A stretch of 64,000 bases of DNA, from IMG/VR virus record IMGVR_UViG_3300042474_001633, positions 96,283-160,282 of that record; one strand, given 5' to 3'. The position numbers were made by a program, and so were the translations under genes. This document shows, piece after piece, positions 46,216 through 53,630 of this stretch (its first letter is position 1; each line of letters starts with the position of its first letter). Below the pieces are notes generated by a model. That model saw only the letters and a program-made list of their open reading frames with translations. It was not told where the DNA came from and did no database searches. Origin of the DNA: a virus.

Positions 46216-46539
46216 TTAATCGCCCCACATTTGCGAGAGTGTCGGTCTAGTCGGTCCAACGCCTCTCCTCTTCTGTTCTGTTTGCAGCTGTCTGGAGGTC
46301 ATCCCTGCCCAGATGCCGTGCATGTCTGCTACTGGGAACTCCAGTGCGTAGTTAAGACACTGAGTCGATACCGGACATGCTGCGCATAGTGCTCTGGCCT
46401 CTGGAATGTAACTAATGTCCTTATGGGACTTAGGAAACATCATGTGTGTCAAGCCCTTACACTCAGCGAAGTACATCCAGCCTTTATCTTGGATATCACT
46501 TGCTGTTGGTGCGTTTGTTATTTCTTGTTCGTCCGGCAT
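46216..46539 (-). CDS. WhiB-family iron-sulfur regulator (second copy)
   Basis: 107 residues. Cluster ligands: FAECKGL, then RALCAACPVSTQCLNYAL; then HGIWAGM and a basic tail (QTEQKRRGVGPTRPTLSQMW). Shorter tail than the copy at 15171 and a different sequence, so the phage holds two distinct WhiB proteins. Overlaps the HslV-like gene by 44 bases. Confidence 0.9.
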   Translation of the reverse strand: MPDEQEITNAPTASDIQDKGWMYFAECKGLTHMMFPKSHKDISYIPEARALCAACPVSTQCLNYALEFPVADMHGIWAGMTSRQLQTEQKRRGVGPTRPTLSQMWGD

Positions 46540-47191
46540 TTTGACTAACTTTCTTTATCGGTATCGGTTGTTTGTCTTTCGTGCCGGAACTATCTTGTAC
46601 ATAGGTGTGGTATGGGGCACCTGTGTGAACATCGTATTTTGCTGCTGTTGATATGGCTTTTGTGGCTGCACCTCTTGCTGCTGGTATGTCAAGTGACTTT
46701 TTCTTATTGAGTAGGACGTGAAGCGCGCCTAGTGCGTAGTCTCCACCTGAGCCAATTGCGTAATACCCATTTGAGTCAGAGCACCATGCATAGTCTCCGT
46801 CAAGCACATATACAACACCATGTATCACTACCAGAACGGTTGAATCATGTTGTGCGATATGAGAAGCTTCTCGTTCTGGAGTGGCGTATCCCTGCTTTTC
46901 GAACGTCTCCCTCAGTACTGGTATGAACTTATTGGTAATAAAGGCGTCAAGCTTTTTGCCCTTCAAGTTACTTGGAGGTGTAGGTGGAGTGAATGCGTGA
47001 TGCAAGATATTGATTGCTCTCACATCTCCAGCTGCCCCCAGAAGATAAGGTCCATTCTGAGAGACCTTGGATAGATTGCCACCCAAGTGGGAGATAGCTG
47101 ATGTTGCTCCGTTCTCCATCATGGAAACGATTCTTGAGTCAGCTGTTACTACAGCAAAGCCATCTCCCTGTATTGCCACTATGGTTGTCAT
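46496..47191 (-). CDS. HslV/proteasome-like Ntn hydrolase
   Basis: 231 residues starting MTTIVAIQGDGFAVVTADSR, closely like HslV, in which Thr2 becomes the nucleophile after removal of Met1. VSQNGPYLLGAAGDVRAI and YAIGSGGDYALGALHVLL match the beta-subunit core. The last 45 residues (PIPIKKVSQNAGRTRNNKRT) are a basic extra tail. No HslU-type unfoldase is in view except the MoxR-like ATPase at 36679. Probably a self-compartmentalising peptidase; target unknown. Confidence 0.78.
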   Translation of the reverse strand: MTTIVAIQGDGFAVVTADSRIVSMMENGATSAISHLGGNLSKVSQNGPYLLGAAGDVRAINILHHAFTPPTPPSNLKGKKLDAFITNKFIPVLRETFEKQGYATPEREASHIAQHDSTVLVVIHGVVYVLDGDYAWCSDSNGYYAIGSGGDYALGALHVLLNKKKSLDIPAARGAATKAISTAAKYDVHTGAPYHTYVQDSSGTKDKQPIPIKKVSQNAGRTRNNKRTNSK

Positions 47192-51702: not shown

Positions 51703-52341
51703 ATGCCGGAACTAAACGCAAACACTCCGCAAATAGAATGCTATGTCCGCGGCAATTATCTCAGAAATCAAAAAGACTCCCATGAGCAGTATTTCCCATG
51801 CGTGATATTTGGGGTTACATCAATTCAGGGACGCTCTCCACTGTTTCATTTCTTGATGGAAGATGGTGGTGTCTGGTGGAGAATGCCGATATCGGCCTTT
51901 TGTTCGGAGCCTAATGTTCCAGAGGTGGATATACACGATTTGGTTTTATGGAATTCATTTAGCGCACACATAACCGTCACCGAATTTCAGGCAATGCGAA
52001 ACATGCGAATGACGTACGTGGCCAGAAGTGGTGAATTTGTAAATGGAAGATATCTATTTACACTCGATTGGCATGCACCAGACGACAATGTAATCAATCT
52101 TGGTTTTAGCGTTAACCCAGGTCAACACAAATGCGGACATGTAATGCTGAGAGATGATGGGAACTTTGCCATTCAGCCAAACAACAGGGTTAGATTGTTT
52201 GACCCATCATTTACCACTAAAGACGGTAATCTTATAAAGCGATTAGTAAATACAAGATTGTGGGATGTTGAAGATGCCAAAAAATGGCGGACAGCTGATA
52301 ATGATGAGTATTACTACGATATTGAAGTAACCGAGGAATAA
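51703..52341 (+). CDS. Unknown protein
   Basis: 212 residues, strand-rich and compact (CYVRGNYLRNQKDSHEQYFP, FHFLMEDGGVWWRMPISAFC, YLFTLDWHAPDDNVINLGFS). It contains HKCGHVMLRDDGNFAIQPNN. Not assigned to any family. Overlaps the next gene by one base; no promoter seen, so it may be read from the tRNA/thyX transcript. Confidence 0.68.
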   Translation: MPELNANTPQIECYVRGNYLRNQKDSHEQYFPCVIFGVTSIQGRSPLFHFLMEDGGVWWRMPISAFCSEPNVPEVDIHDLVLWNSFSAHITVTEFQAMRNMRMTYVARSGEFVNGRYLFTLDWHAPDDNVINLGFSVNPGQHKCGHVMLRDDGNFAIQPNNRVRLFDPSFTTKDGNLIKRLVNTRLWDVEDAKKWRTADNDEYYYDIEVTEE

Positions 52342-52523
52342 TGAAAGTCTGGATTAACCATATGAATCACGACCACTCATCCACATCTAATTTTTTAATG
52401 ATTAGCGAAATGAACTTAATGTGGGCATTGATGGTGTTAATGGCTGCCCATCATTTTTGGATGTGGAAAAAATCAAAAGGTTGTCACTGTCATAAAAACT
52501 GTAAATCAAAGAACGCAAGTTAA
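52341..52523 (+). CDS. Small His/Met/Cys-rich membrane protein
   Basis: 60 residues. A Met-rich hydrophobic span (LMWALMVLMAAHHFWMW) with His on both sides (HMNHDHSS), and a CHCHKNC tail, suggesting metal binding. Its stop (TAA) overlaps the ATG of the ferredoxin fragment. Confidence 0.6.
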   Translation: MKVWINHMNHDHSSTSNFLMISEMNLMWALMVLMAAHHFWMWKKSKGCHCHKNCKSKNAS

Positions 52524-52555
52524 TGAGAGCTTGGATTGACCAAGACCTATGTTGA
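52523..52555 (+). pseudogene. 5' fragment of a ferredoxin gene
   Basis: MRAWIDQDLC then stop. The first 30 bases equal the start of the intact ferredoxin gene at 53382 except for one base (GCT vs GTT). The fragment was coupled to the gene before it. The map ATG lies inside it at 52549. Confidence 0.8.
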
Positions 52556-53385
52556 GCGTTCCTGACCACATTGTGAAGCCGCCGTACGCAGAGACTGGCA
52601 AGGTCACGCGCTGGCAAGAATCTGCAGTGAAGTCACCTGAAATTATTGAACGCATGCGCATTGCATGTTCTGCTGCTGCAGAAGTACTGCGCCTTGCAGG
52701 AGAATTTGTTCGTCCAGGAATTACGACGGATGACATTGATGTTTATGTGCACAACTTGTGCATCGAGCGCGGTGCATACCCGAGCCCATTGAATTATTTA
52801 GGCTATCCAAAGAGTGCGTGCACTTCAGTGAACGAAGTGATTTGTCATGGAATTCCCGATTCACGCGTACTGCAAGAAGGCGACATCATTAACCTTGATG
52901 TCACGTGCTACATGAATGGCGTTCATGGCGACACCAATGCAACATTTGCAGTAGGCGAGATTGACGACGAGAGCCGCAACCTAATTTCTGTAACCGAAGA
53001 GTGCACATGGCGCGGCATTGAAGCCGTTGTTCCTGGTCGCCCACTAAGTGACATTGGAAAAGCCATTGAAACCCGAGCAAAACAAGACCAAATGAGCGTT
53101 ATTCGCGCCTTTGTTGGTCACGGAATTGGCGAGCAGTTTCACACCGACATTCAGGTGTTGCACTACTACGACAAGAGCAACAACACCATCATGCGCCCTG
53201 GCATGACATTCACGATTGAGCCGATGATTTCACTTGGCACATGGCAGCACCGCATGTGGAACGACGGCTGGACAGCAGTCACCGCAGACGGCAAGCGCAC
53301 CGCGCAATTTGAACACACCGTGTTGGTCACTGAAACTGGTGTTGATGTATTGACAGGTGGACCACTCACCAAAGGGAAAAAATGA
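52549..53385 (+). CDS. map: Methionine aminopeptidase, type I
   Basis: 278 residues. Metal ligands occur in the family order: NLDVTCYMNGVHGDTNATF (two Asp), FVGHGIGEQFHTD (His), FTIEPMI (Glu), AQFEHTVLVT (Glu). N-terminus carries the actinobacterial-type extension (IVKPPYAETGKVTRW). It removes initiator Met from proteins. Codon use favours GCA, CGC and GTG and differs from neighbours, suggesting recent capture from a host. Inserted within a ferredoxin 5' end, its start sits in the fragment and its stop overlaps the ferredoxin start. Confidence 0.93.
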   Translation: MLSVPDHIVKPPYAETGKVTRWQESAVKSPEIIERMRIACSAAAEVLRLAGEFVRPGITTDDIDVYVHNLCIERGAYPSPLNYLGYPKSACTSVNEVICHGIPDSRVLQEGDIINLDVTCYMNGVHGDTNATFAVGEIDDESRNLISVTEECTWRGIEAVVPGRPLSDIGKAIETRAKQDQMSVIRAFVGHGIGEQFHTDIQVLHYYDKSNNTIMRPGMTFTIEPMISLGTWQHRMWNDGWTAVTADGKRTAQFEHTVLVTETGVDVLTGGPLTKGKK

Positions 53386-53630
53386 GAGTTTGGATTGACC
53401 AAGACCTATGTACTGGAGATGGACTATGCGCGGAGATAGCCCCAGATGTTTTTCATATGATGCCGGACGGTCTTGCGTATGTAAAAGAAGGGGACAAGAT
53501 TTATGCGGCCGCTGTGGGGAACCCAGAAGGCGCGGCTGGATTAGCATCCTTCTTAGACGACAGGCTTGAAGACGTTATTGAGTCGGCTGAGGAATGCCCT
53601 GGCGAGTGCATTTTTATAGAAGTTGACTAA
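53382..53630 (+). CDS. Small [3Fe-4S]/[4Fe-4S] ferredoxin
   Basis: 82 residues. MRVWIDQDLCTGDGLCAEIA then PDVFHMMPDGLAYV and ESAEECPGECIFIEVD: cysteines at 10, 16 and in ECP, with Asp/Gly where the second Cys of a [4Fe-4S] motif would be, so a [3Fe-4S] type used by actinobacterial P450 systems is likely. A middle stretch (AAAVGNPEGAAGLASFLDDR) is longer than usual. No P450 or reductase gene is seen. A terminator hairpin follows. Confidence 0.88.
   Translation: MRVWIDQDLCTGDGLCAEIAPDVFHMMPDGLAYVKEGDKIYAAAVGNPEGAAGLASFLDDRLEDVIESAEECPGECIFIEVD

What the first reader, a model, noticed from the sequence alone, without database searches (positions are those of the whole stretch)
52523..53411. map gene inserted precisely in a ferredoxin gene between 30-bp direct repeats
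The first 30 bases of the ferredoxin gene (53382-53411) are duplicated, one base different, at 52523-52552. Between them lies map, starting inside the left copy and ending over the right copy's start. Recombination between the repeats would delete map and restore an intact, coupled ferredoxin gene. The map codon use differs from its neighbours. This captures a cellular gene gain at base resolution.
Basis: partly seen in the sequence, partly recalled or inferred. Interest (0 to 1): 0.76.

Follow-up and report, generated by a model that had tools for sequence, protein, structure and literature searches.

The report
Host gene captured between ferredoxin-start scars
A lake phage took a protein-processing gene (methionine aminopeptidase) from its probable actinobacterial host, and both DNA joints are still readable base by base; related phages now carry the gene in several genome positions, most of them joined at the first 30 bases of a ferredoxin gene, so a rarely seen step of phage evolution can be followed directly.

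Summary
In detail: 52523-52552 and 53382-53411 match at 29/30, with map (52549-53385) between them. The reading holds and can be sharpened.
(1) Donor: the map body is 96% aa / 89% nt identical, without gaps, to the chromosomal map of freshwater Ilumatobacteraceae. The tree puts both phage maps in one clade inside that host genus clade. The host's SEC-C zinc motif was left behind.
(2) Joints: both show microhomology (left TATGT to CCTATGT, 5-7 nt; right ACTGGYGG, 5-8 nt). The right joint is not in ferredoxin but in the 3' tail of another phage gene, 'X', which directly precedes ferredoxin in many relatives. The implied duplication is 59 bp, of which the window keeps 30.
(3) Empty sites exist: orf60-ferredoxin, X-ferredoxin, and L378 (98% identical to L015's flank).
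(4) The cassette spread: the same map occurs in six left and six right contexts, always with ferredoxin-start scars where the ends are visible, even in a 159-kb record with no detectable ferredoxin gene.
(5) orf60, just upstream, is a second cassette beginning with 20 bases of ferredoxin start, so the window holds a tandem array.
Best model: microhomology-mediated capture, then exchange at the ferredoxin-start seam. Single-step template switching is favoured but not proven.

The parts
51703..52341 (+). orf212, upstream neighbour (phage protein, phrog_3704)
   Evidence: in L036 a 90% aa homologue is followed directly by ferredoxin
52341..52523 (+). orf60, the body of a second, older cassette; its first 20 bases are a ferredoxin-start copy (here ATGAAAGTCTGGATTAACCA; ATGAAAGTTTGGATTGACCA in relatives)
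   Evidence: L372/L373/L374/L376 keep the ferredoxin start 20/20; four left contexts
52523..52552 (+). left ferredoxin-start copy
   Evidence: flank-specific alleles in L012-L015
52523..52555 (+). leader ORF MRAWIDQDLC-stop, overlapping the map start codon (ATGTTGA), probable translational coupling
   Evidence: sequence; same overlap in all five ferredoxin-type left junctions
52546..52552 (+). left capture joint, microhomology CCTATGT (5-7 nt shared by ferredoxin start and host map)
52549..53385 (+). map: type I methionine aminopeptidase without SEC-C motif; metal ligands D117, D128, H191, E224, E255 present
52553..53352 (+). host-derived body of map (Ilumatobacteraceae)
53353..53360 (+). right capture joint, ACAGGTGG here, ACTGGTGG in L009 (host ACTGGCGG, gene X ACTGGYGG)
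53361..53381 (+). tail of phage gene X (encodes the map C-terminus PLTKGKK; carries AAAGGG, probable ribosome-binding site of ferredoxin)
   Evidence: 29-nt tail has 20-23 identities with X-ferredoxin loci against 6-10 with unrelated flanks
53382..53411 (+). right ferredoxin-start copy
53382..53630 (+). intact ferredoxin (single-cluster, Fer4_15/Fer4_13)

Best explanation
A phage of freshwater Ilumatobacteraceae whose gene X lay directly before ferredoxin gained about 800 nt of the chromosomal host map. Shown: the left joint fuses the ferredoxin start to an internal Met codon of host map at a shared (CC)TATGT; the right joint fuses host map to the 3' tail of gene X at a shared ACTGG(Y)GG. So map lies between an upstream ferredoxin start and a downstream X-tail plus ferredoxin. 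Inferred: this arose by template switching during replication or repair (copying from ferredoxin into host map at microhomology and back onto the phage 59 nt upstream of the departure point), or by two separate microhomology joints. Result: a new phage gene encoding a catalytic-only MAP without the SEC-C motif, its start codon overlapping the stop of a 10-codon ferredoxin leader, and ferredoxin with its start and ribosome-binding site preserved. Shown: the cassette then appeared in other phages with different ferredoxin-start alleles on its left. Inferred: it moved by recombination at the ferredoxin-start seam, plus occasional further short-homology joints (L008, L009). orf60 has the same anatomy, so the seam has been used at least twice.
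For: Donor: host map L105/L106 96% aa, 89% nt over 802 nt without gaps, chromosomal (next gene coaA-like by my reading). Tree: the two phage maps together 100/98, in an 11-row clade with that host genus 100/100. Purifying selection: phage-host dN 0.023, dS 0.56; phage-phage dN 0.012, dS 0.18. Microhomology 5-7 and 5-8 nt; random host/phage breakpoints reach 5 in 0.5% and 7 in 0.035%. X-tail: 20-23 of 29 nt against 6-10 for unrelated flanks; X-ferredoxin adjacency in L020, L021, L023, L024, L029, L030, L039, L041, L051. Empty sites: joined window flanks align to L056/L082/L090/L372 over about 420 nt; L378 is L015's left flank at 98.25% over 400 nt with intact ferredoxin; L053/L055 for L012 at 86%. 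Spread: the first 102-120 nt of map are identical in L011-L014 while the 30-nt left copies differ. L008 keeps ferredoxin-start scars on both sides, yet its 158.7-kb record has no ferredoxin match. A collection-wide search for ferredoxin starts that do not continue as ferredoxin after codon 10 found only map fusions. SEC-C: PF02810 in host, absent in phage.
Against: The exact donor and recipient are not sampled (best host 89% nt), so microhomology lengths rest on proxies; L105 has CCAATG instead of CCTATG at the left joint. L014's left copy, the candidate for the original 59-bp duplication, is no closer to the right copies than other X-ferredoxin alleles, so a one-step event is not demonstrated. 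L012-L015 end within map, so their right sides are unseen. No RecA or RecT family protein was found in the phage record; host enzymes or another annealing protein would be needed.
Confidence: 0.85

Rival explanations
1. Two-step capture: host map was first joined to an X tail (replacing X) in one phage, and its 5' end was joined to a ferredoxin start in another event or phage; the flanking duplication is a by-product, not the footprint of one event.
For: The left and right alleles do not match specifically (L014 left against right copies 20-21/29). Independent short-homology joints clearly occur in this population: L008 right joint TTGACCAA with gene A, L009 right joint CAA with an orf212-like gene.
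Against: Needs two rare joints on the same host gene; the overlapping 59-nt duplication is explained more simply by one template-switch event.
Confidence: 0.35
2. The ferredoxin start is the recognition site of a site-specific recombinase or endonuclease (TTGGATTGACCAA has TTGG/CCAA arms), and map and orf60 are gene cassettes moved by it.
For: Breakpoints of orf60 (GACCA|), L008 right and L009 right (GACCAA|) cluster within 1-2 nt, and L008's unit is bounded by TTTGGATTGACCAA. Two unrelated genes share the anatomy.
Against: No recombinase in the cassettes. L009's native target has no such core (L185: CCCTGGACAACACAAATG). The map left joint lies 9 nt further on. The core is simply codons 4-7 (WIDQ) of ferredoxin. 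Gene A's TTGACCAA is native coding sequence.
Confidence: 0.1
3. Assembly or amplification chimera.
For: All records are metagenomic contigs; several end inside map.
Against: Three assemblies agree over 6.7-10 kb; the map reading frame is intact and under purifying selection. Contig ends inside map are expected where several genomes in one sample share it.
Confidence: 0.03

Closest known systems
[quoted passage not shown] 2008, J Bacteriol 190:2172; seen only as a citation in PMC9262239 and PMC3203893, text not held)
   Same: Phage of an actinobacterium; by the title, host DNA acquired by illegitimate recombination.
   Different: Here donor, empty sites, microhomology at both joints and later spread in other phages are all visible, with a flanking duplication of a phage gene start. 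The Giles details could not be compared.
Host-to-baculovirus integration by microhomology (PMC4735498)
   Same: Host DNA joined to viral DNA at microhomologies of 1-20 bp, longer than chance.
   Different: Host insertions observed within insect-virus populations; here a gene kept under selection in phages.
T4-type mobile regulatory cassettes / PeSLs (described through PMC4503421) and phage mosaicism by relaxed homologous recombination (PMC3945230, PMC2327257)
   Same: Short shared sequences act as seams for gene shuffling; minimal pairing length 23-27 bp for Red-beta fits a 30-bp seam.
   Different: The seam here is protein-coding (start of ferredoxin), duplicated on both sides of the cargo, not an intergenic promoter/stem-loop.
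Mycobacterial MetAP1c (PDB 1y1n, 3iu7)
   Same: Type I MAP catalytic domain aligned over residues 4-269.
   Different: The phage copy derives from a SEC-C-bearing host MAP by truncation at an internal Met.

Membership tests
Host gene captured by a phage through illegitimate (microhomology) recombination | Gene nests within a cellular clade of the likely host group | tested here: met
   11-row clade 100/100 with Ilumatobacteraceae genus
Host gene captured by a phage through illegitimate (microhomology) recombination | Short identity shared by both parents at the joints | tested here: met
   5-7 and 5-8 nt, chance 0.5% or less each, using proxy parents
Host gene captured by a phage through illegitimate (microhomology) recombination | Uninterrupted phage site exists | tested here: met
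   L056/L082/L090/L372, L378, X-ferredoxin loci
Single-event template switching | Both copies of the 59-nt duplication present and derived from one another | tested here: inconclusive
   L014 has X tail plus ferredoxin start on the left, but allele match is not specific and its right side is unseen
Integron-type or site-specific gene cassette | Recombinase acting at a fixed core present in every target | tested here: not met
   Native target of L009 (L185) lacks the core; the cassettes hold only map or orf60
Transposon | Terminal inverted repeats or transposase | tested here: not met
   No inverted repeats bound the insert; its single gene is map
T4-type PeSL regulatory cassette | Seam is an intergenic promoter/stem-loop | tested here: not met
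   Seam is the first 10 codons of ferredoxin; promoter activity not tested
Type I methionine aminopeptidase (M24A) | Catalytic fold and five metal ligands D, D, H, E, E | tested here: met
   PF00557; ligand motifs at 115, 126, 190, 222, 253
Type I methionine aminopeptidase (M24A) | Enzyme activity | not testable with these tools
   needs assay

The most novel reading that the evidence does not exclude
The 5' end of this ferredoxin gene is a recurrent seam at which freshwater actinophages accumulate and exchange promoterless gene cassettes in tandem, each starting with 20-30 bases of ferredoxin start, which also provides translational coupling: an integron-like array without an integrase. The clustered breakpoints at GACCA/A could even mark an unknown enzyme's site.
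Probability: 0.3. Interest if true: 0.8.

Novelty: new variant of a known kind. Interest (0 to 1): 0.64.

Why it matters
How phages pick up host genes without an integrase is an old question with few cases where donor, recipient, joints, uninterrupted site and later spread can all be read. Here they can, down to a few bases, and the event shows how a truncated cellular gene became a phage gene: the start codon overlaps a ferredoxin leader, and the ferredoxin ribosome-binding site is kept in the borrowed tail. The duplicated gene start then looks like a ready homology arm that helps the new gene move between phages, a testable route from capture to spread.

Tried and rejected
A fixed 11-12 bp core (GGATTGACCAA) as integration site was my first reading of L008/L009. 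It was dropped when the native genes showed that L008's right joint is an 8-nt match native to gene A and that L009's native gene lacks the core.
Reduced synonymous diversity of ferredoxin codons 5-8 (0.08 against 0.39 mean) could hint at a recombination seam, but other single codons are equally low and only four codons count; not used.
A seam at the start only: ferredoxin's downstream neighbours vary as much as its upstream ones (16 and 16 clusters among about 80 loci), so the ferredoxin gene itself is mobile at both ends.
INPHARED phages hold no match to this ferredoxin and only under-60% maps.
A closer donor in the host genus (23 genomes) was not found.
No RecA, RecT or peptide deformylase in the phage record.
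Papers on phage MAP as an auxiliary gene: none found.
L004-L007 (74-77% maps in viral contigs) fall among host maps in the tree and carry no ferredoxin-start scar, so they are probably cellular sequence.

Full report
OBSERVATION. The repeat is real: 52522-52552 and 53381-53411, 31 nt with one mismatch, spacing 859. Map (52549-53385) starts inside the left copy and its stop overlaps the right copy's ATG. It is a Peptidase_M24 protein and the downstream gene is a complete single-cluster ferredoxin. The window is 96283-160282 of a 160-kb viral record with HK97 capsid, primase/helicase, B12-dependent ribonucleotide reductase, ThyX, SSB and a VanY-type lysis protein. Two other assemblies, L002 and L003, carry the same arrangement at 99.96% over 10 kb and 99.99% over 6.7 kb.

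EMPTY SITE. In L056, L082, L090 and L372, orf60 is followed directly by an intact ferredoxin. The window with map and one repeat removed aligns to them over about 420 nt at 85-88%, with at most one small gap. L022, 97.8% identical to the window up to about 51697, has ferredoxin directly after the tRNA-Asn, without orf212, orf60 or map.

DONOR. The body of map matches the chromosomal map of freshwater Ilumatobacteraceae MAGs (L105, L106) at 96% aa and 89% nt over 802 nt without gaps. In a DNA tree of 46 rows the two full phage maps form one clade (100/98) inside an 11-row clade with that host genus (100/100); whether they are nested in or sister to the sampled species is unresolved (77/80). Phage-host dS is about 0.56 with dN 0.023, comparable with dS between host species (0.35-0.75), so the capture is not very recent and the gene has stayed under purifying selection. 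A search of 23 genomes of the host genus found no closer donor. The host protein has an N-terminal SEC-C motif (PF02810), lost in the phage because the joint falls at an internal Met (SPM|LSVPDH); the catalytic domain and its metal ligands are complete.

LEFT JOINT. Ferredoxin GACCAAGACCTATGT|ACTGG and host AGCCCTATGT|TGAGCG give phage GACCAAGACCTATGT|TGAGCG: 7 shared nt with the window's ferredoxin allele, 5 with CTTATGT alleles.

RIGHT JOINT. It is not in ferredoxin. Host homology ends at TTGACTGGCGG|CATTGG; the phage continues ACCAATCACCAAAGGGAAAAAATGAGAG, which is the tail of a phage gene, here called X (protein end TGGPITKEK), followed by ferredoxin. X directly precedes ferredoxin in L020, L021, L023, L024, L029, L030, L039, L041 and L051. 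The 29-nt tail shares 20-23 positions with these and 6-10 with unrelated flanks. Shared sequence at the joint: ACTGG(Y)GG, 5-8 nt. Random breakpoints in these parents reach 5 nt in 0.5% and 7 nt in 0.035% of trials. The duplicated stretch in the original X-ferredoxin context would be 29 + 30 = 59 nt; L014 has this whole stretch (X tail + ferredoxin start) on the left of map.

SPREAD. The same map occurs with left flanks of the window type, L008/L011, L012, L013, L014 and L015, and with right flanks of the window type, L010, L027, L008/L276, L266/L275 and L009. The left ferredoxin-start copies differ by flank, while the adjacent 102-120 nt of map are identical in L011-L014. Uninterrupted counterparts exist: L378 for L015 (98.25% over 400 nt), L053/L055 for L012 (86%), X-ferredoxin loci for L014, and L291 for L008 (96%, intact holin); no close counterpart was found for L013. 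A pattern scan of the whole viral collection for ferredoxin starts that do not continue as ferredoxin after codon 10 returned only map fusions, so this left joint is probably one event. L008 carries map between a truncated holin and a truncated gene A, with ferredoxin-start scars on both sides and no ferredoxin in its 158.7-kb record. Its right joint is an 8-nt match, TTGACCAA, native to gene A (KLDQHIRDH). L009's right joint lies in an orf212-like gene with CAA shared. These are further short-homology joints of the moved cassette.

SECOND CASSETTE. orf60 in L372, L373, L374 and L376 starts with ATGAAAGTTTGGATTGACCA, 20/20 the start of ferredoxin alleles, and is followed by ferredoxin. In the window this start has 18/20. 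Its four left contexts (nuclease gene..DHLEGK gene, an intergenic stretch ending ggtatacttcctat, orf212) resemble sequence that elsewhere directly precedes ferredoxin (L048-L050, L071/L072/L077, L080/L081/L087, L036). So the window is an array: [start|orf60][start|map][ferredoxin]. A further pattern scan found no third cassette of this kind.

MECHANISM. Shown: donor, joints, empty sites, allele-switch at the seam. Inferred: template switching for the capture (or two separate joints), homologous exchange at the 30-bp seam for the spread. The seam is in the range of the 23-27 bp minimal pairing length reported for Red-beta (PMC3945230). No RecA or RecT homologue was found in the phage record. 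Inferred function: a phage-encoded catalytic-only MAP that trims N-terminal Met of proteins made during infection, translated by reinitiation after the 10-codon leader whose stop overlaps the map ATG.

COMPARISON. Host-gene capture by illegitimate recombination is known as a concept (Giles; microhomology in baculovirus, PMC4735498), as is seam-driven shuffling (PeSLs, through PMC4503421; PMC2327257). The combination read at base level, with a coding gene start as the duplicated seam, is a new variant.

Noticed in passing
window 52341-52523: orf60 (HHFWMW...CHCHKNC, no family match) is itself a ferredoxin-start cassette; no form without the ferredoxin start was found, so its origin is unknown.
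   Followed up: partly
L008 5896-7743: Map cassette sits between a truncated holin and a truncated gene A tail, beside diverged copies of the A-B-holin module.
   Followed up: partly
ferredoxin start position 20-21 in window, L008, L009, L372: Three separate joints (orf60 left, L008 right, L009 right) break at GACCA/A of the ferredoxin start; coincidence of local homology or a preferred break point.
   Followed up: partly
window 46496-47191 (-): Weak proteasome-subunit match (PF00227, E=2.5e-6) in a phage of a probable actinobacterial host.
   Followed up: no
window 51703-52341: orf212 matches phrog_3704 labelled 'ferredoxin' (3e-55) but Pfam finds no iron-sulphur domain; the label may be wrong.
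   Followed up: no
L014 4093-4485: Gene X (Cys-rich, ends TGGPITKEK) recurs in many of these phage loci without Pfam or PHROG match, often directly before ferredoxin.
   Followed up: partly
window 30063, 33413, 34203: Repeated hairpin GGGGCGCACCTGCCTTTC.., probably shared terminators.
   Followed up: partly
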